Shown piece after piece: positions 12,801 through 57,825 of a stretch of DNA of 64,000 bases. How positions within the stretch are numbered: the first letter of the stretch is position 1; each line of letters opens with the position of its first letter. The notes under the pieces are model-generated. The model had not been told where the DNA came from and made no database searches. It was given only the letters and a program-made list of their open reading frames with translations. A program made the translations under genes and the position numbers. The stretch is from Apostichopus japonicus (Eukaryota > Echinodermata > Holothuroidea > Aspidochirotida > Stichopodidae): positions 5,557,001 to 5,621,000 of the forward strand of contig NC_092578.1 of NCBI RefSeq assembly GCF_037975245.1, read 5' to 3'.

Positions 12801-15800
12801 TAGTGTAGGTATTACCCATGATGTCAAAATTCTGTCAACATCAATATTATGTCCCTGGAATTTCTGGGGGAAAATATGGTCTCTTTATTATGAGACCATG
12901 TCTAGCTTTCAACACAAAGAATAGCTCAAAGTCATATTGTGTAACTACTCACAGAATAATGTAATGTTTCACAGTACATTCTTTCTACCTGTTTTTACCA
13001 TTAATATATCATAGTGTAACTTACAAGTCTTTGTTTATAATTAAAGTCCAATATTGAGAAATCGAGAGTAAGTTATCGCAGGTTCGAGAAAAAAGGGAAG
13101 TCAAGTTTTCTAGTCTATTTATATTTGCAATAAAATAAGAATGAGTACATCAGATAAATTTATCACAAAACACCACTGTCCGTATAAATTTTCTTCATTT
13201 TTCAGTATTCCTTGGTTCTTCTTAAATCCAAGAGATAAAATTCCCCTTACTCTCCCTTTTTCATAACGTACTATCTTGCTTTGACGATTGCAAAATGTAG
13301 ATCGTATTTGTTATGTGCAGGAATGGCAACTATGCTGAAATTGCCACAGCAGGAAGCCTACATGAACTGTTAGTCAAACTGCACAAGACGCATGGGCCTA
13401 TTGTCTCATTTTGGTTTGGACCAAAGTTTACCGTTAGTGTAGCCGATCCTGAAATGTTTAAAGATTTGAAGGCTGTGTTCGATAGACCTCGTAAGTACAT
13501 GTCGTTTCATAAAACCCATAGTATTTACTGCACTCTACCCTTACCTGTCTCCATGCCACTTATGCACCCCAATATACCCTAACCTACCTAAATTAGTAAC
13601 ATCTTAGCACTGCGCACCCCCCCCCCCCCATTGCCCTACTTATGGGCCTGGTGGGTCACTGTGTTGTAAGTAGACATTAGAGGATAGCGTTAACTATAGG
13701 GCTTAGTATAAACTTAGCTGGTAGGTTTATAACAATTTGGTCGAATGATATTTGGTATCCTGTGATATGCCAAAGTTATATCTTTGTTCTTTCAAAATAC
13801 GTTTTGTCCACTAAAACCAAATCGTTCATTCATTCACTTATTTGTATTGTCACTTGTACAAACAATTACATATTGTTGCTGTAGTTTCATTGTCATAGTT
13901 TGGTATGTATCACTATCAATTACATTTACAACATTTACAAACAAGGATAATACAGGAATGTTCAATCTACAAATTGTTCAATCTACGTAAAAGTGAGATT
14001 TTGATTGTCTTGCCTTCTGTCCAACCAACGTTTTCCCCGGGCTGGTTGTCCTAGAAAATGAATTGAGCACCTGTGACATGACATTTCCTGCTATTCAGAG
14101 GAAGATTACATGAAAAATCTTTCTCTTGCTGAGCTGACTGCGCGGTTCAAGGAAACTAATACTTGACAGACGTGCATGACCTAAAGGGAAAGGAAAAGGG
14201 GAAATGTCTGCCGAGGAGATTAGAGGAGATACAGTAAAATGGTTCAGGTTTTTGGCAAGTACATGAATTTAATCCCCGTCAAGTTTACATGATTATGATT
14301 AACTTGTTGTCTATTTTTATCTTATAGCTGAGCTGTTCCGGTTGTTTGAGCCTCTGATGGGTCCAGAAAGCATCCAGTTTGCAAATGGCTTTGAAGGACA
14401 CAGACGCCGAAAACTCACCGACCCATCATGGAGTCATGACATGCTTCGACACTTTTGCGAAAGCTTCAATGAAGTAAGTGAATTGTCGACAAATTGGAGT
14501 TTAGCCACTGATTTGAACCGTGATTTTTACAGATTGGTTGTAAAGAATACAAAGCATAGAATCGTGTAAATTTATGTGTTTCTGTGTTAACTATAAACAT
14601 ACAGCAGAAATCTTTATTGGTATTCACAGCTTTCTACATTTCGATTTGGGCCGATTTTTGTATTCCTTTCTTTCTCTTTTGTTACTGTTGCAAGGATATG
14701 TATATTACCTTAGTGAACCACATTCTCTCACCATGCTCCTTCTGTGTTAATTGGTTTATTGTTTATTCTGCAGCTCGGTGAAGAGATGAGTACCAAACTC
14801 TCCTCTTTGCCCAAGATGGAACACATTCCCCTCTCTCAGTACACCCTAGCTCTCACCATCAAAGGACTCTCGCAGACTTCGTTTGGCAATTACTTCAAGG
14901 ATGATAAGCACTGCCACAATATGAAGCATAATTATGACATTGTACACAGAAAACAAAAAATACTCATTGAGAGTAAATTTACTTAACAAATGAGTGTCGA
15001 AACTATTATTCGTTCACATATTGTGTGTTTGAACGAGCTTGCTTAGGTTTGTGTGAGTATTTGTACCATCATGCTTTAATTTACTCATTCGTCCACGCAA
15101 GAAACGTAGAATTAGAGCTTTAGAGGTAATAATACTAGCTTCAAATGATAAAACTATTCGCACATTTAAGTTTACCCTTGACCATGGTAAATTTACTCAA
15201 TCTCTTCAGAAATGTCTTACAACAACGAGAGTTTAAGTACACGTTCGTGTTTAACTTTACTAGTATTAGAATAATCTCACACGCCGCTTTCAAGGACTAC
15301 TACTTCGTACGATGAATACGTCACTTTCACGCGCAGGCTACCTTATACCACGCTCACGAAGTTACGGTTACGAAGTTGTGGTGTTTCGTTAAGCATCTAA
15401 GAGTAAGTATTTTATTGAAAAGATGATCCAACAGCACAGGTCGTGGACTATACCTAACTTTTCATTTTTATATTGATCAACACATTCAGCTACTAGACTG
15501 ATACGTAAAGTCAGTGACAGTTACTTGCAAGGTTACTTGTAAGTTGTAACGTTAGGATAGCCTACTTGGGCAGCTTTGTCCCGTAGTCTTTGTAGGCTAG
15601 GCCTACATCTACGTGTAAGTAGGCATAGACTAGGCGAAAAGAATTGACTAGGCTAGGCATATGCCATCTGAGTTGACGTTGTGAACAGCAGTGTGGCAGT
15701 TGTTCAACTAAGAAATGACCTGCATATGCTACTACTAGTACTATTGTTCCACTTAGCCGAAAGTTTATGACTGCAATGATATATGTGGTTCTGTGTAGTC

Positions 15801-18800
15801 CAGCCTTACTTAATCCTAACGAGTAGCAATTTGATTGTGTTTGTGCAGGCCCTAGCCCTGCCAAAGCAGAGTGGGGCGGGGGGGGGGGGGGTATTAACAG
15901 TAGGCCCTATAGGGTAATATTGTGAAAGAGATCATACTTGTTATAACTACAGATGTACTGTTAAAAACAAAATAATACTAGGCCTAGGGGCCTAGGGCCT
16001 ATTATAAGAACAAATGAACAACCAAATTGCCATGCTACTTGGAAGTTGGAACATCATCTAGGCTACCTTATTAATATTAGCTTAATAGGGTACATGACTC
16101 TTAATTTAGTAAAGGTCGGGTGAGAAGCAGAAGTAGCTTATCATTGGGTCAGCAGAGGTAGAAATATACTATTTTTAAAATGTGAAAGTCAGGCACTAGA
16201 CCTAGGCATTTGAAGAAAATTAGGCTTAGCCTATATGCCTAATTTCATTCAAATTATATAGGTCTGCCATTGTTAATACCAACCCCTTAAACTAAAAGCC
16301 TTCATTATTCTTGCAGTTACAATAGACCACAGAAGTCAATACACAGGCCGCTTAGTTGAATCACCATTGCTACAAAATCCTTCACTAAATTCATAAGTGT
16401 ACCAGTATGAAGTAGTTGATCATGATGAACTAGGCTGGATGAAATTTAGTGAGAAACGTACATCAAATGATGAATTGTCATATTCTGATGATAAGGAGGG
16501 AAGAATAATAAAATTATTGATGTTAGTCAAAGCTCTGTCATGTCCTTGATGTTATTAACAGATGCTGATCGATGTCTCAGAGTTTTAAAATGCATATAGG
16601 CCTAATTTACAGCAGTTAATAGTTTCTCCAACTTTTTGAAGCTTCCTTCTACTTGTTTTTTTATTTTAATTTAATTCAGACTATATTCTTCTCAAAGACT
16701 GAAAAAAAATTATAATATTAATGTGAAAATCAACGGACAATGCCATTGCCTAAAATATTCATGAAGTGCTGCAAACGTTGATGAATATTGACTACTTGCA
16801 AAAGTCTTACTTTTGTCCTAATTTTGGGCTAAAAAATTCTTCTTTTGTCCTGTTTTATCGAGGATTTTGATCCTATACTTCAACTGTATCATAGACTTTC
16901 ACCATAGTCCACTTGAAAGCATGCTCTGTTCAACAGGCCATTGTAGCCATCAGTATAGAAAACTGCCTTGAATCATGATTTTGAATTTAAAGCCATTAGT
17001 TAAATATAGGCACATTGATGCTAATGCCTAAATGAGATTTTATAAATGTTTTAGGCCTACATAGAAAGGTGTTACTGGATAATACCAAGTTACATTTAAT
17101 CAGTCAGTATACTGCTATCGACAGTCTTATCTTTAAATAGCTGGAAAACATATTTCGTACGCTCTTTTTAATGATGTTTTGAAATGAACTGTTTCTTTTT
17201 CATTTCAGATTTTCATAAACACTGCAGAACGACAGTCCTGAAAAGGAGCCAAACATACGCAAAGTAAGCATGGCAGAAAATAGGTGGAATTTAAATTACC
17301 AATGCCCAAAATGTTCGGTCTTTTGGACAGGAAGGTTCAACAAACTCTTAGAACATTTACACTCCATTCACTCTCATGAGCAAAATTTTTCACTAAGATG
17401 CGGGATAAAAAATTGTGAAAAGACTTATGTTAAAATTGATTCATTTAAGAAACATCTGAAAAGGGTGCATAATAATTGTCATTTGGATGAAACACTGTCT
17501 ATGTCTGAGGAAGCAAACATGCAAATGCATTGCGATCATGAAGATACCAATTCTGAAATGCTAGAATATGATGCAAACATAACAGATCAAAGTTCTCACC
17601 TCCAAAATCAACTTGAAAACCAGTATCTATTTCCATATGCAATCCATGTTTTAAAATTGAGAGAAGTTCACAAATTACCTCGGACAATTTTAGATGAAGT
17701 TGCTAGTGAATATAATAAACTCTTTGTTTCAAATCTTCTCGACATTGAAAATGCCATAAATACTGATTTAGCTGCAATGGGTGTAAATATAAAAGATTGT
17801 CCTAACATTCAGGGAGTATTAAAGGAAAACAAACTTCGTAAAGCCATTGAACACATGGCTAGTGAGAATCATCAACTTCACTTTTGTAGACAACAGTTGA
17901 ATATGGTGGATCCCCTACAAATTTGTCTTGGATTTGAAGCATCTGGCAAGAAAGAAACATTCGAATATGTTTCTATTTTAGGTACTTTGCAGTCTATGTT
18001 GCTAAATGCTGAAATTTTAGCACATGTTATCAATGGACATTCATCTAGGGATCCAGATATTATGATGGACTATTGTGATGGAGCCAAATTTAAATGTAGT
18101 AGACTTTTTCAAATTCATTCAACTGCAATTCAAATTCACTTATATGTAGATGATTTTGAGGTTGTAAATCCTCTAGGGACATACACTGGTACCCATAAAG
18201 TTAATGCTATGTACATGTTTATTGGAAATGTTGAACCAAAATATCGATCTTCTGTGAACCATATTCAATTAGTTTGGCTTTGCAAAAGTTCATTAATGAA
18301 AAAATATGGCTTGGATACAATTATCAAACCCCTCATGGATGATCTAAACATTCTAGAGGAACATGGAATTCAGGTAAATGTTCATGGCGTAGAACACAAA
18401 TTTTATGGTTCAGTTTGTAGTGTCATAGCAGATAATTTAGCCAGTCATTTCATAGGGGGATTTACAGAATCTTTCTCAGGTTTTCGTGTGTGCAGGTTTT
18501 GTATGTGCACATCTGAAAGTCTCAGAAAAAATGAGCTTCATCAAAGTCATATGGAAAGAACAGTCAATGCCCATAAGATTCATGTGAGCAGAGTGCGAAA
18601 TGACAGCGAAATGTCAACTGCGTATGGTGTGAAGCTGGATTCGCCTTTGAATTCCCTTCATTATTTTCATGTAATTAATGGGCTACCACCAGACATAGCT
18701 CATGACTTGTTTGAGGGCGTTTGTCCAAAAATTTTGAGCACTGTGATGACGTCATATGTGCAGACAGGTCAAATTTCTGTTGAAACAATCAATAAGAGGA

Positions 18801-21800
18801 TCAATGATTTTCCATATGCAAGTTTTGACAAATCAAACAAACCCACTACATTATCTTGGTCATGCTCTTCAGTTAAGGTAAGGCAAAAAGCCTGTCAAAT
18901 GTGGTGCTTGATGCGCCTTTTTTTCTTGATGTTTTCAAATGACATTGAAGAAAAAGATGAAAAGTGGCAACTTTTGCTACATATCATTGACATTGTGGAC
19001 CTTGTGACTAGTCCTAGTGTGACCAAACAGTCATGTGTTTACCTCAATGGTGTGGTTTTAGATTGCTTAGAGCTGTTTTGTGAGCTATATCCAAATTCAC
19101 ATCTTACACCCAAAATGCATTTTATGACCCACTATGCCAAACAAATGATGCAATTTGGACCTTTATCACATTTTTGGACTTTGAGGTTTGAATCAAAACA
19201 TTCTTACTTCAAAGATATCTCAAGGGCTACTAAAAATTTAAAAAATATAACATATACCCTGGCAAAGAGACACCAAATATTTCAGAGTATCATTATGTCA
19301 ACTTCAGATTTGGGCAAAGAGAACACATTACCGGTACAAGGTGAAATGATCAAGATTGGTGAATTATCACCTGAAATGACACCATTCATTTTGAAAATTA
19401 CTGGGGAATGTGACGAGGTATATGTCTCAATGTCTGTACATTTGAATGGGGTGAGATATGATTCTGGAGCATGTGTTATCCTGAATGTAGTTGAGAGAAT
19501 GTGCCAATTTGGCTTAATCAAACTGTGTTTTTTTCACAATTGCGAGTGTTACTTCATTATTCATGAAATGGATACTGAGTGCTTTGATAGGAATTGTCAT
19601 GCATATGTTGTTGTAGAGTCAAATAGAAAAGTGATCATTCAGAGTAGGAGTTTTCTTGATCACAATGCTTTACCAATGTACAAAGTTGGTACTAAAAGCT
19701 ATGTAGTAATGAAGTACAAGTTGCATCAAGAGTATGCTGGCCTGTAAGCCATTGTCCACATACTTATCAAAAAGGCGAGGAGACCTTTTGTTGCTTTTTT
19801 GCTTGGTATTTTAAGTTTGTGGGTAGCCTTGCAGTACTCTAGCCATAATCAGCACAAACAAGTTTCACATTTTGATACATTTTATATCATTTTTTTTTCT
19901 CATCAGGCTGTGCAGTTTCTAAAGCCTCATCTTCTATAAAAAATAAGCATGCCAAAACTTGCCCTAGCTTTTAAAAATGGTACATGTTTTATCATTGCCC
20001 TTGAAAAATGCAGCAAAGATAACCTAGATGTTACAGACTGTTTTTTTGAAGGGAAAAACACAATCGTATTTTACAGCTTAATTGGGTTTTCAACATTAAT
20101 TAACTTTGTCCTAAAAAGAGCGTGTGAAGTAGAAGTTATCATTGTGAACTAAATCAGTATTAAAGAGCAACAACATGTCAACATTTCATATCACCTTCAA
20201 AGAACAAAAGCAGGTCTTTGAGGTTCAAGACATATCAACTTTAAAGGAAAAAGTGAGAAGTGAATTTCACATAGATGAGGATATCAGGTTTCAACTTTAT
20301 GACAAAACATGGGATGATTGGGTAGATGTGGAAATCCATCAGCTACCACAAAGAGGAAAAATCCAAATAATTACCATCCCTCATGAGGATACACTTCCAA
20401 TAAACTTGACTGACTTAAGCTCAACAAACAGCTTATTTAGTGAAAGTTATAACTTCTCAGATGCTCCAATCCAAATTGAGCCACCCACAAAAAACTTCAT
20501 AAGTAGTATGATTCAACTTGCACACCAAAAAGAAAGTTGCCAATCAACCTCTCAGGCTGAAGATATCTCTTCAGCTTCAACAAGTTCTAGTCATTCATGG
20601 AATGTGGAAGAAGACTGCAGTACCGGAGAGTCAGATGTCAAGAGAAAATGGCTTGAGATGTAAGATACTTAAGTTCCTTTTCTTCAATGTTTTACCCTCA
20701 ATGGTATGATCAACACCCATGCTATAATTTGAAAACTTTCAAATCTTGAAATAACTTGCCTTTACTTGCTGACCTTTACTTGCTGATAGGATCATTGTAA
20801 CATATCGAACAGTAACTGTAATGATTGCTTGGAAACAAGACCCAGATACATCACCGGACATTCTTCTGGGTGTGGTTAAATAACAACCAACAGGAGGAGC
20901 TGATGAAGGGGGGAGGGGGTAGAAGGGGAGGATGGCATAGTTAATGAACTAACACGTTCGTGCTACGGCTAAGGATCTGATGGTAGATGTTGGTTTATAT
21001 AAAATTGCAAAGCTGTGGAGATAACCGGTTTGTTAATCCAAAATATTTCTTCACAGGAAGCAATGGCCAGACAAATTTGCTCTGCCAAGACTGCCAGTTG
21101 TGTTGGAGGGAAAGCTCAACGCAGAGAGAATGCCTAACGACAGAGAAAGGAGACAGATAGTCCAAACATTGTTTGATTACATGGCAGGCTTTACAAGGTA
21201 AGTTAAAGTAACACTTGTTAATAGTAGATTTACTTCACTGATGCCATCCCTCACTTACCATACCTCACAATTTGTTGGGTTACAAAAGAGGTTGCTAAGT
21301 TATGTAGGATATATCTTACCATATTGGTTGTGCAACTGTCAAATTACCGGTTACTCAGGTACAAACAAATCTACCAAATGGATCATTACTGTGGACAAGC
21401 TTAATTGTCAAAGCATTTGTTGTTGAATGATGTCAATTATTTATGTGACAGTTACTTTGGTTATGGAGAAATTCACACATAATCTCTCAAAATATGTTAA
21501 CCCAAAGATGTTCATTCAACAGTGGTCACAAATCTTGCAGTGCTTTTCCATTGGTTATTTTCATGTATTGATAGTTGCCCTTTGGTCCATCAACACACAG
21601 CTATCCATTGTCAGCTCACTACTCAGAGGCAGTGAGATGCTTATTGGAGAAGTACCCCTTCCTTGGAAAGGAAACCATCCCTGGAGCCCGTCCAGTAGTA
21701 AGAGATCACTTTTGAAAATTTGCATAATATGGGTTCAGGGCTGCACACTTGTGCTGAAAGGAATTTTGGTGGATTAATGGTGCAGCTCTTCTCTTGATTA

Positions 21801-24800
21801 CCTCGATTACAATGATTAAATAATTGTGACATCCCTATTGTCATTCAAAAGTACAGTAAGAAATTCTTTCTCTGCATATCGTTTTCAAACTTTTTTATAT
21901 TGAGTCTTGGCATGATATTGATTGATTTGTAGAGCAATACCACAAAATTGTTGTAAGAAAATCAATATTTGTAAGATATTTTGGCAGAAAAACTGCTTTA
22001 GTTTGACTTTTGACAGCTGATGGATTTCACTCTTAAATTTGAGAAATCCCAACATTGGTTTTGAGCTATATTAATTGGACGATCAAAGTGTAATCGTGAT
22101 TGATGGCAATTATTAAATAGTTACAACTTTCAGCAATACTATGGAAGTCTGATGAAAACATCTGTTCTTTGTGTAATATTTCTAGAGCTTGGGATATGGT
22201 CACTGAAGGTTGAATATTATGGAGTTTTAAATAAACAGGTATATGGAGAGCCTGAGAGAGAGGGAGAGTTGGGGGGGTAGGCTTTTGAGGGAAAACATTT
22301 GGGAATCCATGTTCAATATTGACTATCCAATATTTTTATGTACAAATTATTATAATTTTTTTTTAAAACAGGAATACTGGAGAATGAAAATAATGGACAA
22401 GTTCAGGAATGAGAGAAAGCACATGCCAGTGGAAAAGAAGAGAAAAAGTAGTGGAGTGACACCAGCTAAAGCAGTTGATGATCAACAATTAGTAGATGAT
22501 ACAGCCAGTATTCAGAGGCATAAGAAGTAAGTATGTAGGTAGTAAGTAATTTACTTTTTTGATACGGGCTGAATATGAATCAAATAAATCTTCTGCTTTT
22601 TCTTCTGAAAAACAAAACAGAAACACTCTTCTTGCTCATTCTCAACTGTGTCATTTCCATATAGGCATCAGAATGGTAATCAAGGGTTTAAAAATAAAAG
22701 AAATCAATCAAGACTTCTTGTTCTAGAAGGACACGGTGGTGCCTTTTGTTTTGCAATGCATGGTTGGTGTGACCTCCATTTCTTTGATATTTGTGTTTCC
22801 ATAGGTGGATGCAGGAAGAGGCAAGAAGGGCTCGACAAAATGAAGTTAAGATATCACAGATGATGGAGATAACTTTTCAACCAAGAAGAAAATGGATTAT
22901 CGATGAAAAGCCTACTGTAGCTGAGCTGAAGCGAGAATTTCCTTGTCTGTTTTCACAGAGACAGGTAAACCTTCCTCCTACAAAAGCACAAGTTAAAATT
23001 TGCTCCTTGCAACTTCATGATGTGTTTCATACTGTTCTTCATTTCCATTGTTTTTCTTTCTTAATGAAAGTAACATTTCAGCATGCATCATGAAGATAGA
23101 TATGCTTTTTGGTTCTGATTACTTATGTAACCATGACGTTCATGATCATATCTTTATTGTAACATCCATGTAATTGCTTTCTTTGTCTGGTTGTCAAATA
23201 TATCATTCTGCAAAACATTTGCATTCTGCAGTTTGCAGTTTGCATTACAGTTCTTGTTGGGATATGCAAACAACATTTTGAAATGGTTTCATATGTTCAT
23301 TAGTGGAGTAGGGAATGAGATGGTGTTCAATGGCCATACACAGTGGAATATTCTCTTAAATTTATATATTTGCTTCATACTAAGATCAATCTAGACTTCT
23401 ATTTCTCTATGGCATGGACAGAGGCATGCACAAATGGTTTCATGTCTCCACGCCACCCAAGGAGTGTCAGCCTTTTTTGTCTGTTTTTCATACAAATATG
23501 TTTTAATATTTTATTTTCTCATTACAAATTTGCTTTACTGAAATATGAACTTCTACATTTTGTACAACAGATTCTCATCGAGATGAGGCGAATAACCCCC
23601 AGCATTGATGCTTGTCATGCAAAAGATCTTCTGATGAGCAACTTAGAGGCATATGCTAAATATTTAATAGATAGCTGCCAAAGCAAAAAGAATGCTAAAG
23701 CGATTGTTAACAACTACAGAGAGGCAATTGCCAACTTAACCAACGACCAAGCTAAAGGTAATTTTACTTCACTAATGTAGAATATTTATGTATATGAAAA
23801 GCTGATTTCCAGCCATAGTGAAATAGGTAAGAGGTTAAAAAGCACATTTAGTTAATGAACTTCTGAAACGACAATGCACCTTATTCCAAATTATCTCTTT
23901 CAAAATTGTTAGCATACATGAGGTCGTATGCAAAATGTACTGTACTTAATAGTAACTGATGCATATTTAGTACTATTACCATATGTATAAATGTACAAAT
24001 AAAAGCTACAAAAATAAGAGGTAAATCATGTTATTGCAGTTGATCGATTATTCTGGCCTGTTGGCAAGGGAGTTTGGGAAGTGTTAGTTCTTTAATGGAT
24101 TTTTGCAGGATCATTTGGAAGAAACAGTTTTTTTCACAGGTTTTTGCACAAGGACTTAAAAATTGACAAATTGGGTTAAATCAAATAGCCAAAAAGTTAC
24201 AGCATTAAATTTTTATCCACATTTCTTGTTGTGATATTTTGTCCCTTTCTGATATTTGAAATGTCCATGTGCCATTTTTCAAATATTATTAGCACCTCTA
24301 AGACGTGGAGCTCTATTGACAAAGGAATGTGTGCGAATACATACTACATTATATTTTATTCAACTTTCTCTAGAAGCAAAGGTCCTCACAGCTCTTGTAC
24401 TTGTACCGTTCTACTTTAAGGGAGAAAAGCTGTCTTCCTACCTTGTTGGAGATCAGGTATGTTATGATAGCAAAATGCAAACTTGATTCAGGGATTGCTC
24501 AACATAAATTGTTGGCTACTTTGTAAAAAATATATTATGCCCACTTTTTTTTAACCAAACACAACATATATTTATGACAATAATGTGGAAAACCATTGAT
24601 ATGTTTAAAAGGGTTGAAGTTGATTCAAGACTAATGATAATTATTTTTATACATTCTTGTGACTGTTTGAAACTTCATTTGTTTTTTTAATTATTTTATC
24701 TTCTTCAGGAGGAAGATTCACTTCTTACAGCACACCCAAAAGTTTGTTACAAAGGAGATCTGTACGCCCCTGAAGAAATTGTTGTGCAGGCTGAAAATGT

Positions 24801-27800
24801 TCTGGTCTGTACTTGCAAATCGATGTTAGATGCTCTTTGTTGTCTAATTTGCACATACTTTGCCTTTGATATGGAGTATCCAAAGGAATGTAAAAATTCC
24901 TTGTTGCTGGCAGAAACCATGCTTGGAGCGAAGAATAGAACAACACGAAGTGTACAATCACTTATTCAAAAGGTACTTTCATGTACCTCCAAAGTGTAAA
25001 ACACCCTCATTTGCTCTAACTTTGATATTGAGTATCAAAGATATGTTAGACTCCATTACTGCTGGCTGAAACAATGATATTAGTCCAGAACAGAAAAAAC
25101 ACAAACTATGCATTTATTGATTCAAAGGACCTTCATATAGCTCTTTAAGCTTTAACTTTAATAGACTAAGAGTTCTATACAATGGAAAACTAATTGAAAG
25201 CAAAAAAGTGTAAAAAGTATGGTTATTCTGTTTCTCAAAGTTTAGGTGTATGTTTTCTTCATTTTATTACCAATGCAAAGAAACTTTTGAAAAAAAGGTT
25301 TTGACTGTTCTTTTCCATTTTCTTTCATTTAAATTATTTATTCTTCATAAATAATTGCTGCATGGGCTGAAAAAGTTCTGGTCTGCACTTGCAAATCCAT
25401 GTTTGATGCACTTTAATTCATATATATAATTGTTAACCCTTGCCAATGAATGATCACTATTTCAAGTTTATGTCAACCTTTCCATGATGATATTAAAAGT
25501 AAATCACTAAAGTTTCATATTAGAATTTAGTATCATAACAATGTATTTAGTGTCAATACGCAAAACATTGTAACCCTTTGAGATGTACACATGTGCATGG
25601 GCGGGAGAAATCTAAAAAGTTTAAAGATGTTTGGTGTTGATTACATCCTAAAGCAGAGTTTTTTGTACTACGAAAACAAATAATCGTTGATGTTTAATTG
25701 ACTGGAAATCAATGGTGTTTATCGTTCTCGTCATTATATCTGGTCGTTTTATAAGTCATAGTATATATACATAAGTTAATTAGCCAAAGCATATCTTGCA
25801 AAGAAAATTATGTGTCTTTCATGAACGGAAAAGATTGATCAAAGTCATCTGCTTTTTACGTACTTTCAAGGAAGATATCGTTTTAACAAGTCTTAGAATA
25901 CTTTAACTGTTTTGGAGTACATGTGTTTAGTGTGCCTTCTTTTGTTCTGTTCTGACGCGTTTGATTTGATACGTATTTGTTTCAATAAAACATTGACAAA
26001 ACTACAATATTTTATCTCAGCTTTCATTTCTTAAGATTACATAAATGGTTAAGTGAATAGTAATTTTACTCATGGCTTGAGTATGTTTATGGTTCGACTA
26101 GTAAATTTAAACAAATTTCCTGGTAGTTTTCGGGATGTAACTTTACGAGGCTTATATAGTAACTTTACTACCAACACCATGTAAGCATACTCATAGTGGT
26201 CGTAAATTTACTCACATTTGCCTAGTAGAATTGGGGATGTAACTTTACTCGCAATTGGAGTAAATTTCGTTTTCTGTGTAAGCTGCTTTTATTGCATTTC
26301 GTCCCAATTCTTTATATATGAAAGCTGATCTTACTGACCTGACTTGTTTACAAGTATGATTATGCTTGTCCAACATCAAAGCAAAACAGTTTGCTGCCTG
26401 GATCTCATTCAACCAGCACATTAAGGACTTCTGCAATTGTATAGCCTCCCCTTCCCCTCTGTTTATGGCATATAGAAATAATGAACAGCCAAGGTTTCTC
26501 AAAATGTCAATTGATAAAAACTTTACATGTCTGGTTAATATGGCATAAAATAAGCGAAGGCCTATAAACAATCTCCTTCTGTGGAGTAATAAAGCTTTAC
26601 TTTACTTTTAGGCCACCAAAAAAGGGCAAAAAGGAAATAATACTCAAGGATTAGTTTGTACCACGCAACCGATTAAATAGAGGGCATCGTAGACATATGC
26701 TAAGTATAAAAACATAATTGCTTAAATACCGATAAGAAAAGAATAGGCAAATAAATGCATACATGGGGATCAGCATATCATGTGTAAGCCAAGGTCTATA
26801 GATATATTTGAGAGCGTTGACGATGTGCATGCCATATAGTATCACACAATGTAATATGTTTGCTATACTAATGACCCACCATGTGTTTGGGTCAAACCAG
26901 GATGATTGAAGCAAGAAGAGTGGCTTCATGTGGACTACTTCAGAGTTCCTATGATACTTATACCTATGATATAAACTTTACAGTACCTATCAAATAAGTA
27001 CCTATCAAATAAGTACCTATCATATGACCTTGGGAGTAACAATTATAATGATATATGATATACTGATGATATGAACTTGGAACTCGGGATTACCTATGAG
27101 CACTTGTTAAGAACTCTGGAGTATCAATGATACAAGTACCTACGATATGCACTGAGGAGTAGCTCCCAGTACCTATGATATTAACGTAGGAGTAGGCCTA
27201 CCGAAGCCCTGAGTAGTAGGCTACATTTTAGTCACTAGATATTGTATATGCTGAAAAACGTTAACCAATAATTTAATAATTATTGCGTTTGTAAACACTC
27301 TATATTAATTCTCTCTACCATTGGCCTATTACAGTGATACAACACACGATAAAATGTTTTTGTTTTTTCAATAAACATAACAAATAGCCAGCCCTACAAT
27401 TAGTCCACCTATATAGCTGGGTTTCTCAATCTTCGACAATCTTTTTTGCTCCAAAAAAGTTCAATACCTTTAGTTTACGATGCGACTCTGTAATGGCTAT
27501 GTTTTCATTTTGACAGTGCTGGAAAGAAATGGAAGCAAGATTGAGTGGTGCACAAATGTTGGAAGGCAGTGAGAGACAGAAAAGATATGATGAAGGTAAC
27601 TTCATAGACCTTCTTTATCCTTTTTACAATAAAATTATGCATTCCTCTTTTTGTGTTATACTGTAGCGCCTCCAACAGGTTGTAACTAGCCAAGCGGCTG
27701 TGGGTTCGATGGGGCCGCTGTCAGCCACCCTATGTCAGGATCAATGTGGGGCAATTACAAGTTAACAATACCTGAACCAATAAAACACGAACAAATAAAT

Positions 27801-45900: not shown

Positions 45901-48900
45901 CTTTATACTGTGAAGAATGTGACCAGTAGAGCGTGCAGTCATGCCAGAATGACTCTGTTTTAAAGATATTGGCACTCCATACAATTTCATATTAATAAGA
46001 TTTGAGATTTGAACTTCACACACCCTCAATCTACAATGGATCTATTCTATGCACACTGGTTAAATAGAAAAGACAAACTTATTTAACAGCAGACGTGGAA
46101 ACCCTGCGGGTTTCAAAACCAACATCACGCATCGAGATTGGATTTTGAGGTACTTCTTCAGTGTGGGAAACAAAATGCCAAAGTAGAAATCTGGATTTGA
46201 AAGCCTGTGAAAGCATGTGAAACTGTGCAGTGTTTGTTTGTCAGTAGAAATTTAGGGATTACCTGATAATTTTATTGACATAAAATCATGTAGTTTTTTT
46301 GTATGGCAATGGATTTTTTGTCTCAATTCTACCACAAATTCCAGTTTTAGACTGTATGTGTTAATTTTTTTATTGTTTTTTTTATATCATTTCTCAGGAA
46401 GATAACTAAGCATAGAATTATGTTTTCTACATTTTGATTTGGAGCCAATGACCCCTCCACTTTCCTTTCTTCCTTTCTTTTTTGTAACTGAAGCAAGGAA
46501 ACGTAAATTACCTTAGTGAACCACATTCTATCAAAATGCTCCATCTGTGTTAATTAATTTATTCTGCAGCTCGGTGAAGAGATGAGTACCAAACTCTCCT
46601 CTTTGCCCAAGATGGAACACATTCCCCTCTCTCAGTACACCCTAGCTCTCACCATCAAAGGACTCTCGCAGACTTCATTCGGCGATTACTTTAAGGATGA
46701 TGAGCACTGCCACAATATGAAGCATAATTATGAAATTGTGAGCTGCTTTTTTTGCATTTCGTCCCATTCTTTATATATGAAAGCTTATCTTTCTGACCGG
46801 ACTTGTTTACAAGTATGATTATGCTTGTCCAACATCAAAGCAGAACAGTTTCATGCTTATATATCATTCAGCCATCACACTAAGGAGTTCAGCAACCGTA
46901 TAACAGCCCCCCCCCCCCCATCCCCTCTGCATAAGGCATATAGAAATTATGAAGTAGATGGAAAAGCCAACTTTTTTCAAAAAGATACCAACAATAACTG
47001 AACATGTCTGGTTAGCTTGGCATAAATTCAGCGAAGGCCCCCAAAATAAAGAGTAAAATAGGAAATGGCACTAAAAGTCCAGTTAGTACTACACAACCAA
47101 TTAAACGGAGAGCATCGGGTGCACATGTTACGCATACTTGGTTAAATACTTAAGAAAAGAGAATGGGCAAAAAGTTCATGCATGGGGATCAGCATGTCAT
47201 GTGTAAGCCAAGGTCTATGGAGAGATGTGAGTGCGTTGATGATGTGCATGCCATATAGTATCACACAGTGTAAGGTAATTGCTATATTAATGACCCACCG
47301 TATGTTGCAGATTACTAAGCTATTATGCTTCGTCTGTGTGAGCAGGAAATAAAGGTCAAAGCAAGATGATTGAAGCAAGAAGAGTGGTTTCATATGGACT
47401 ACTTCAGAATACCTATGAGATGTATACCTATGATACAAAGTTTAGAGTACATATCATATAAGTACCTATCATATTAACTTGGAACTATGGTACCCATGAT
47501 ATATGATGTGAGCTTATTAGAGCTAAATATGAAGTTGTGACGGAAACGACATGTAAATAATTCGTATTCCGGCAGAAAGAGTTTCCAAGGGTGTTGGCGC
47601 ATAAAAGCAAAGATGGACGAGGTTTCGTATGGTATTTTGAATAACAATATTTCTATATTCTACAAATAGTTTGGAAAATACAGGTGAATGGTACAAGTTA
47701 GTGATAAGCAAAGGTACAGTATACTTAAGGCGCCAGAAAGAAATAACTTATCTATAAAGAATGGGTCTGAAGTCGATGAACTCGATGGTGTAGTAGAGCG
47801 CGCGGAATAAATAAATGATTAATAGTTCATCCAAGGACAGTTGTACTTGTTATAACGGGATCCACTTCCATTCACTGGATAGAAGTCAGATATGGTATGG
47901 AAAAGAGAAAGTCCATTCCGTAGTAGAAGTGATTAGATAATTAGATGGAAAGAAAGTTACTAAATACTTGAAGATCCTTCAGTCAAACCTTGAACAGATT
48001 ACCTATGAGCCAATGACAAGAACTTGGGAGTACCTATGATATGCACTGGGTAGTACCTCCCAGTACCTATGATACGCACTAGGGAATATGCCTACCAAGG
48101 CCATGAGTATTAGGCTATACTTCAGTTAATACTACCTATTATACGTTAACATGGTTCAATTGTTTAATAAGCATAAGAAATGATCAGCCCTTGATTAGTC
48201 CACATATGCATAGCTGGGTTTCTCAATCTTTCACAACTGTTTTGCTCCTCTAATGTTCAATACCTTTGTTTGATTATTATGCGACTCTAACATAGCTATG
48301 CTTTCATATTGACAGTGCTGGGAAGAAATGGAGTCAAGATTGGGTGGTGCACAAATGGTGGAAGGAAGTGAGAGACAGAAAAGATATGATGAAGGTAGCT
48401 TTATAGAACCTCTTTGTCTGCTTAATTTTTTTTTTTACATTTTAACATTATCCATCCCTATTTTTGTGTGAGACTTAGCCCAGAATGATTGTGAGAAGAT
48501 GACTTAAATCTCTACTGCGTACCTGACACAATTTTCTGATAGAAATGTTATTTTTAAACTTAAATCAAATTAGTTTTATCTGACAACAACAATACGTTTA
48601 GTGTGTCAGTTTGATCCAGGAACAACTATTGTCATCTTTCAAAAAGTCTGCCACCATTCCTTCTAAAAGTTAGGTGAGTTGGTGGTAGGTATCAGTGCCG
48701 TAGGTAGGTATAAGTGCCATGGGTAGGTATAAGTGCCAAAGGTAAGCATAAGTGCCACAGGTAGGCATCAGTGTCATAGGTAGGTATAAGTGCCATAGGT
48801 AGGTATAAGCGCCATAGAGCACTATCAGTTTGAATCACTTTCAAATTTTTTAGTGCTATGTAAGTTGCTTTTATTGTTCTTGTTCCCTTAAAAAGCTTTA

Positions 48901-56680: not shown

Positions 56681-57337
56681 TCAATTCTTCAATGCAATTA
56701 GTTTAGTTCTGCGGAGGGGCTATTTAGGTCTCCAAAGAAACATACCTGGCTTTCTTGCAGGTAGTGAAATCTGTTTCAGAGTTCATATTCTTGCTTTAAA
56801 TGTGCACCTAAACCTTCTATAAGAGTTTCTCCTTCTGAGCGCAAGGGGTCAACAGGATACCTCAAATAGAGAAAAATGGCTCAAGGGGTCAACAGGTTAT
56901 GTCAAAAGGTAGAAAACTTTGCCACTTTCTCAAATATATTTCAAGGTATAAAAACAAAGTCATATAACTCTGAACAATTATTTAAAGGGATTTGCTAGCT
57001 CAAAGTTGGTAAAATGTGTCTAAATTTCACATAGGCCGTTCTTTCTGGATATTGAAACCTTTTGGTTTAAAATTCTATATGGATAATCCTTATGAGTCAA
57101 TGACATGGTTGATACTCTCAATGGATTTCTACAATGTTTTCATGTTCTCACTTAATCCTTGGACAAATTTAACTCATTTGCCCTACATTAGTCAGATAGT
57201 GACAGTATTGTTTATTTTGAGCAACTTATATTCAAGGTATCACCAAAGCTAACTGGCTTCGCTGTTAGAAAGGAAATTAATGGCACAAAGATCAAATTAT
57301 TTGGTCGTTCTCCACCAGCCTAAAACATACCGTCAGA

Positions 57338-57825
57338 TAGGCGCCCAAACTATACCTCTTACAGGCGCCCCCAGCTAAACCTCTTATAGGCGTCCCTTAA
57401 CTATACCTCTTATAGGCGTCCCCTAACTACATATCTTATAGGCGCCCCTAACTATAGGCCAACCTCTTATATGCACCCCAAACTATACCACTTATAGGCA
57501 CCCCCAACTAAACCTCTTGTAGGCGCCCAAACACTATATCTTATAGGCGTCCCCTAACTATATCTCTTATATGCGCCCCAGCTACACCTCTTATAGGCAC
57601 CCCAAACTATACCTCTTATAGGCACCCTAAACTATACCTCTTATAGGCACCTCTAGCTATACCTCTTATATGTACCCCCAACTATATCTCTTATAGGCAC
57701 ACCCAACTATACCTCTTATAGGCACCCCAACTATATCTCTTATAGGCACACCCAACTATACCTCTTATAGGCACCCCAACTATAAATCATATAGGGGATT
57801 CCCAACTATATCTCTTATAGGCACT
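57338..57825. repeat. minisatellite, 24 bp unit, about 20 copies
   Basis: The unit is close to ctatacctcttataggcacc followed by ccaa. Variants alternate between gcgccc, gcgtcc and gcaccc, consistent with local expansion of sub-variants. Confidence 0.9.

What the first reader, a model, noticed from the sequence alone, without database searches (positions are those of the whole stretch)
14945..26278. Complete, apparently intact two-gene CACTA/CMC-like transposon nested in a P450 gene
Both edges are fixed by comparison with the empty site in CYP20A1 copy 2, giving symmetric CACAGAAAAC ends and a TA duplication. The 825-residue transposase and the 8-exon accessory gene are both open end to end. 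Intact two-gene animal elements with defined termini are worth cataloguing, and the open frames suggest recent or current activity.
Basis: partly seen in the sequence, partly recalled or inferred. Interest (0 to 1): 0.8.

Follow-up and report, generated by a model that had tools for sequence, protein, structure and literature searches.

The report
Intact CACTA transposon in P450 gene
This is a complete and recently moving "jumping gene" of the well-known CACTA kind in an animal genome, with intact ends and two open genes; it is ordinary in kind, though its second gene has no known function.

Summary
The element is exactly 14945-26278 (11,334 bp), with ends CACAGAAAAC...GTTTTCTGTG and a 2-bp TA duplication at the 5' splice site of a P450 exon; a paralogous copy near 46,737 shows the empty site. 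The 825-aa transposase is one open frame; a second gene downstream reads as 8 exons (532 aa, no transcript evidence). The same genome holds two other full-length copies (about 0.3% substitutions away, each with disrupted genes), two older broken copies and seven deletion derivatives of about 4 kb. Of ten copies with flanks examined, seven have matching 2-bp duplications: TA, TG or CA, so not only TA. The transposase carries the EnSpm/CACTA signature (D294, D388, C-x2-C, H-x3-H, E641), invariant in ten aligned proteins; its Transposase_21 match is below the cut-off. Subterminal repeats cluster at both ends. Relatives of the second gene lie downstream of transposases only 30-36% identical, but were listed for two of the diverged transposase types only. 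Verdict: a real, recently mobile, autonomous-looking EnSpm/CACTA element; a new member of a known kind. The accessory protein is the open question.

The parts
14943..14944 (.). left copy of the 2-bp target-site duplication (TA)
   Evidence: sequence; empty site in the paralogous P450 copy
14945..26278 (+). complete EnSpm/CACTA transposon, CAC...GTG ends
14945..14965 (+). left terminal inverted repeat
   Evidence: arms 14943-14965 / 26258-26280, TA duplication included, 87% complementary
26258..26278 (-). right terminal inverted repeat
14972..15261 (.). left subterminal GTAAMTTTACT-like repeats (3 separate places with at most 1 mismatch)
26059..26249 (.). right subterminal GTAAMTTTACT-like repeats (6 separate places with at most 1 mismatch)
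17270..19747 (+). transposase, 825 aa, C2H2-like zinc finger at the N-terminus (weak Pfam match), DDE-type core with C(2)C and H(3)H
20175..20659 (+). accessory gene exon 1
   Evidence: GT-AG model; genomic matches
21057..21197 (+). accessory gene exon 2
21601..21697 (+). accessory gene exon 3
22372..22526 (+). accessory gene exon 4
22805..22964 (+). accessory gene exon 5
23571..23757 (+). accessory gene exon 6
24374..24456 (+). accessory gene exon 7
24709..24999 (+). accessory gene exon 8, ends in a stop
26279..26280 (.). right copy of the 2-bp target-site duplication (TA)

Best explanation
An autonomous-looking cut-and-paste DNA transposon of the EnSpm/CACTA superfamily. The 825-aa DDE-type transposase (zinc finger for DNA binding, RNase-H-like core) cuts at the CACAG...CTGTG ends and inserts at a pyrimidine-purine dinucleotide, which is duplicated. 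The 532-aa accessory protein most likely works with the transposase as maize TNPA works with TNPD, by binding the clustered subterminal GTAAMTTTACT repeats and bringing the ends together or controlling the promoter. Shown: ends, 2-bp duplication, open genes, other copies, conserved signature residues, deletion derivatives. Inferred: the fold and catalysis, the DNA binding of each protein and the role of the accessory protein.
For: Empty site and TA duplication. Three full-length copies at unrelated sites: 35 substitutions (29+6) between the window copy and C9 and 27 between the window copy and C17, each over about 11.3 kb, besides insertions and deletions. Seven deletion derivatives of the same family, 0.12-1.27% apart from one another. 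Matching 2-bp duplications in 7 of 10 copies: TA in 3, CA in 2, TG in 2. D294, D388, C408-x2-C411, H617-x3-H621 and E641 invariant in 10 of 10 aligned proteins, the window's included; the C(2)C and H(3-4)H motifs and CAC..GTG ends agree with the published description (PMC12730594, passages read). Transposase_21 matched at E<=1 by 6 of 10 members, DUF4218 by 1 of 10. Exact subterminal motif at 5 separate places, 2 left and 3 right, none in the middle and none in the rest of the window. A related family in this genome has CACTG...CAGTG ends flanked by TA and the same gene order.
Against: The window protein scores 16.3 bits against a 28.6-bit Transposase_21 cut-off, and its locus is not among the 46 matches of a whole-genome PF02992 search at E<=0.1. 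No convincing PDB relative: 8 matches at E<=1, best 0.22, mostly zinc fingers. The transposase model was too poor to show a fold. One copy with intact ends (C16) has no matching flanking dinucleotide, and two copies (C22, C2b) have altered ends. The splice model of the second gene has no transcript evidence. Insertion polymorphism could not be tested.
Confidence: 0.88

Rival explanations
1. The element is a complete CACTA transposon but no longer moves: it is a recent relic whose transposition is shut off, and the open frames merely reflect youth. (This concerns activity, not identity, so it does not exclude the family assignment above.)
For: The two other full-length copies carry disrupted genes: an 0.8-kb insertion in accessory exon 6 in C9; single-base deletions in both genes and a 2.1-kb insertion near the left end in C17. 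Only three young full-length copies were found.
Against: About 0.3% substitutions between copies at unrelated sites, an open transposase in C9, and a pair of derivatives only 0.12% apart (C16 and C2a, 5 of 4,024 bases) all point to recent movement.
Confidence: 0.35
2. It belongs to another CMC/CMCT lineage (Mirage, Chapaev, ESTA, Plavaka, Transib) rather than EnSpm/CACTA.
For: All share the C(2)C and H(3-4)H signature and mostly 5'-CA..TG-3' ends (PMC12730594, passages); the window protein's Transposase_21 score is weak.
Against: CAC..GTG ends, recurrent Transposase_21 matches (6 of 10 aligned members at E<=1) with one DUF4218 match, and a sister family with CACTG ends. Chapaev's 4-bp duplication is recalled, not tested; it does not fit 2 bp.
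Confidence: 0.08
3. The downstream reading frames are not an accessory gene of the transposon but captured host sequence or chance exons.
Against: Matches lie downstream of the transposase on the same strand at 18 loci of a 34-36% identical type and 2 loci of a 30% identical type (rows paired by me); in the latter, at C2, the gene is a single open frame of 417 aa that aligns at E 1e-15 over 385 residues.
Confidence: 0.04

Closest known systems
EnSpm/CACTA superfamily (maize En/Spm; EnSpm elements of other kingdoms)
   Same: CAC..GTG ends, subterminal repeats, DDE-type transposase with C(2)C and H(3-4)H motifs, a second gene, internally deleted non-autonomous copies
   Different: Ends read CACAG, not CACTA; duplication 2 bp, not the 3 bp given for plant elements (PMC8978399, passages); Transposase_21 score below the cut-off; accessory protein without a significant Pfam match (not compared with TNPA itself)
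SmTRC1 and other animal TRC elements (PMC1636069, passages read)
   Same: 2-bp duplication (in 7 of 14 SmTRC1 copies, as reported there); CACTA-related transposase; relatives reported in Strongylocentrotus, Ciona, Danio and Aedes
   Different: The three ends described there begin CCC; the SmTRC1 accessory products were reported without detectable similarity in other animal or fungal elements, whereas the one here recurs in diverged families of one genome
Two diverged transposase types of the same genome: 872-codon frame (e.g. L022, L032-L035) and 883-aa (L027, L028)
   Same: Transposase 34% and 30% identical in A1 with the same invariant residues; accessory matches downstream; the 883-aa type has CACTG...CAGTG ends flanked by TA
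   Different: Not among the DNA-level matches; the accessory gene of the 883-aa type is a single frame without introns (broken in the L028 copy)

Membership tests
EnSpm/CACTA | 5'-CAC..GTG-3' ends with short terminal inverted repeats | tested here: met
   CACAG...CTGTG; arms 87% complementary
EnSpm/CACTA | 2-3 bp target-site duplication | tested here: met
   7 of 10 copies with matching 2-bp duplications; 1 with intact ends but none; 2 with altered ends
EnSpm/CACTA | Transposase_21 (PF02992) domain over the curated cut-off | tested here: inconclusive
   16.3 bits against 28.6; 6 of 10 aligned members match at E<=1, best 0.00068; in the genome search the 872-codon type scores about 22 bits, 15 of 46 matches are over the cut-off, and the window's locus is not listed
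[quoted passage not shown]
   D294, D388, C408, C411, H617, H621, E641 invariant in 10 of 10. Which acidic residues are catalytic is inferred from the motif pattern; other invariant D and E exist
EnSpm/CACTA | clustered subterminal repeats at both ends | tested here: met
   14 matches with at most 1 mismatch (9 separate places, since near-palindromes count on both strands) in the outer 350+350 bp, against a mean of 0.095 and a maximum of 2 in 200 mononucleotide shuffles; 3 matches in the rest of the element, 2 in the rest of the window. The motif was chosen by eye from this sequence
EnSpm/CACTA | second gene with an accessory protein | tested here: met
   homology to maize TNPA not tested
EnSpm/CACTA | demonstrated transposition by the encoded proteins | not testable with these tools
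   needs a cell assay

The most novel reading that the evidence does not exclude
Animal EnSpm/CACTA elements carry a conserved second gene, for a protein that perhaps begins with a beta-grasp-like domain and is neither TNPA nor a known Pfam family, which is a required partner of the transposase; and the 4-kb derivatives keep a truncated zinc-finger frame (101 aa, open in 7 of 7) that could act as a competing repressor of movement.
Probability: 0.3. Interest if true: 0.5.

Novelty: new member of a known kind. Interest (0 to 1): 0.32.

Why it matters
A complete animal CACTA element with defined ends, open genes, near-identical sister copies and a set of deletion derivatives is a good substrate for testing how this superfamily moves in animals and what its second protein does. 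It also shows a recent insertion landing precisely in a P450 splice site.

Tried and rejected
Structure prediction without an alignment: both models were too poor to use (mean pLDDT 40.6 for accessory exon 1; 34.4 for the transposase). The order of strands and helix in the first (beta-beta-alpha-beta-beta-beta) only hints at a beta-grasp fold; no fold search was run. PDB search with the transposase profile gave 8 matches at E<=1, best 0.22, mostly zinc fingers, and with the accessory protein none. In viral contigs 68 stretches matched a pattern but none was confirmed as a relative. First exon models of the accessory gene with other borders failed by frame.

The C20 locus, which at first looked like a family lacking the catalytic core, is a decayed relic with many in-frame stops and an internal deletion, and was set aside. 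Paper searches around SAMD3, tried because the accessory protein reminded me (recalled) of SAMD3-like fish proteins, listed nothing that I judged relevant from titles and abstracts; the resemblance is untested. Codon-position counts show a third-position excess against five relatives, but at this divergence they are saturated, one of them (L027) counts overlapping pieces, and two of the eight inputs (L002, L004) gave no data, I think because they lay on the other strand; I do not rest anything on them.

Full report
WHAT IS THERE. The window is G000:C18:5557001-5621000 of a 671.6-Mb genome in 35 contigs. Within it, 14945-26278 is an 11,334-bp insertion. Its flanks, joined, align at 91% (329 of 362) to the paralogous P450 copy at 46.4-47.0 kb. 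The paralog reads ATTG-TG-AGCTGC where this copy reads ATTG-TA-[element]-TA-AGCTGC. The insertion therefore lies in the 5' splice site that follows an exon ending ...GACATT: the left junction now reads GTACAC, while the element's last G together with the duplicated TA and AGC rebuilds GTAAGC at the right junction (sequence). That this is the splice site is my reading of the sequence; the effect on splicing is not known. P450 identity rests on two of three exon peptides matching PF00067; the name CYP20A1 was not tested.

ENDS AND COPIES. The 27-nt left end is found at 10 places and the 31-nt right end at 9 (up to 3 mismatches, window included; reversed control 0 in both). I took flanks for ten copies. 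Three are full length: the window copy, C9 (34148232 down to 34136098) and C17 (6479424-6492898). C9 differs from the window copy by 29+6 substitutions and C17 by 27, each over about 11.3 kb, besides insertions and deletions. C9 has an 0.8-kb insertion in accessory exon 6 bounded by TTAA; C17 has a 2.1-kb insertion near its left end and single-base deletions in both genes. Of the three, only the window copy keeps both genes open. Seven copies (C3, C22, C16, C2 twice, C12, C19) share one internal deletion with a 10-base overlap at the junction; six are about 4.03 kb and the seventh (C2b) is 5.1 kb with two further insertions. They differ from one another by 0.12-1.27% and are 91-95% identical to the window element. 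Two older copies with stops in the transposase lie on C17 (about 15.64-15.66 Mb and 17.95-17.96 Mb). The flanks shown differ from copy to copy, so these are separate insertions rather than one duplicated region.

TARGET DUPLICATION. Of the ten copies, seven have the same dinucleotide on both sides: TA (window, C17, C3), CA (C9, C19), TG (C2a, C12). C16 has intact ends but TC/CA. C22 and C2b have altered ends. So the duplication is 2 bp and pyrimidine-purine in all seven, not specifically TA.

TRANSPOSASE. The 825-aa protein gives a weak Transposase_21 match (E 0.0056, 16.3 bits, cut-off 28.6). One search lists 58 matching stretches in the genome, the window's included, many in long open frames; 55 of 605 candidates were scored, so counts are lower bounds. 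I fetched loci of 12 relatives (L017-L028) and aligned nine of them with the window's protein (A1); two short frames (L023, L025) and one near-duplicate (L028) were left out, and two of the nine (L018, L026) were taken from a later start codon. In A1, D294, D388, C408, C411, H617, H621 and E641 are invariant, among other columns. [quoted passage not shown] Six of ten A1 members match Transposase_21 at E<=1 and one matches DUF4218. A whole-genome search with PF02992 lists 46 matches at E<=0.1, 15 over the cut-off, but not the window's locus.

ACCESSORY GENE. A reading of eight exons (20175-24999) with GT-AG borders gives 532 aa. No Pfam family matches significantly (best E 0.03, below its cut-off) and no PDB chain matches. 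Pairing the rows by hand, accessory matches lie about 4-5 kb downstream of, and on the same strand as, the transposase at 18 loci of a 34-36% identical type (through one stretch, residues 247-351) and next to it at 2 loci of a 30% identical type. In the 30% type at C2 the second gene is one frame of 417 aa beginning about 180 bases after the transposase and aligns at 23% over 385 residues, E 1e-15; the other copy of this type, on C17, is interrupted by a stop. In the 34-36% type, pieces of the N-terminus, middle and C-terminus occur in order behind the transposase of the C9 copy (L033). The gene is therefore an old part of at least three lineages of these elements. PMC1636069 (passages read) reported that two SmTRC1 accessory products had no detectable similarity in other animal or fungal elements. 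In the listings (held open-licence library only; titles and abstract starts seen) I noticed no paper describing this second gene.

SUBTERMINAL REPEATS. GTAAMTTTACT occurs exactly at 5 separate places in the element (6 matches, one place being read on both strands), 2 in the left and 3 in the right outer 350 bp, and nowhere in the rest of the window. With one mismatch, 14 of 17 matches (9 separate places) are in the outer 700 bp, against a shuffle mean of 0.095 and maximum of 2 (200 mononucleotide shuffles; motif chosen by eye). These are natural candidate binding sites for one of the two proteins (inferred).

SISTER FAMILY. The 883-aa type at C2:8080357-8090836 has ends CACTGTAAAAAAAAATCG...CGATTTTTTTTTACAGTG flanked by TA on both sides; its second copy on C17 also begins after TA. 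This ties the group to EnSpm with CACTG-type ends. The edges of the 872-codon type were not settled.

JUDGEMENT. A genuine, young, autonomous-looking EnSpm/CACTA transposon. It is a new member of a known kind; the accessory protein and the possible zinc-finger repressor in the derivatives (a 101-aa frame open in 7 of 7) are the parts worth an experiment. With about 1% divergence, open frames in the derivatives are weak evidence for selection. The host was not identified.

Noticed in passing
window 24777-24838 and 25353-25414: A 62-nt stretch of accessory exon 8 is duplicated (84%) in the downstream non-coding part of the element; matching pieces are seen in the C9 and C17 copies and the derivatives.
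   Followed up: partly
G000 C9 copy, accessory exon 6 (L005): An 0.8-kb insertion with terminal inverted repeats (AGCAGCATTTTGCG) flanked by TTAA, looking like a piggyBac-type non-autonomous element (type recalled).
   Followed up: no
G000 C17 copy, about 425 bp from its left end (L007): A 2.1-kb insertion with near-inverted ends CAGGTGCGTATCCAGG / CCTGGATACGCGCCTG.
   Followed up: no
window 57320-57822: Tandem array of about 25-nt units (CCCAAACTATACCTCTTATAGGCAC-like).
   Followed up: no
L029/L030 (C20:16864200-16876600); similar DNA matches on C2, C5, C9, C14, C19, C20, C21: Relatives at about 65-84% DNA identity whose matches skip most of the transposase core; the one read (C20) is decayed, with remnants of the accessory gene.
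   Followed up: partly
window about 13.3-36 kb and 44-54 kb: Two tandem P450 gene copies, 80-97% alike in the listed repeat pairs, the first carrying the transposon.
   Followed up: partly
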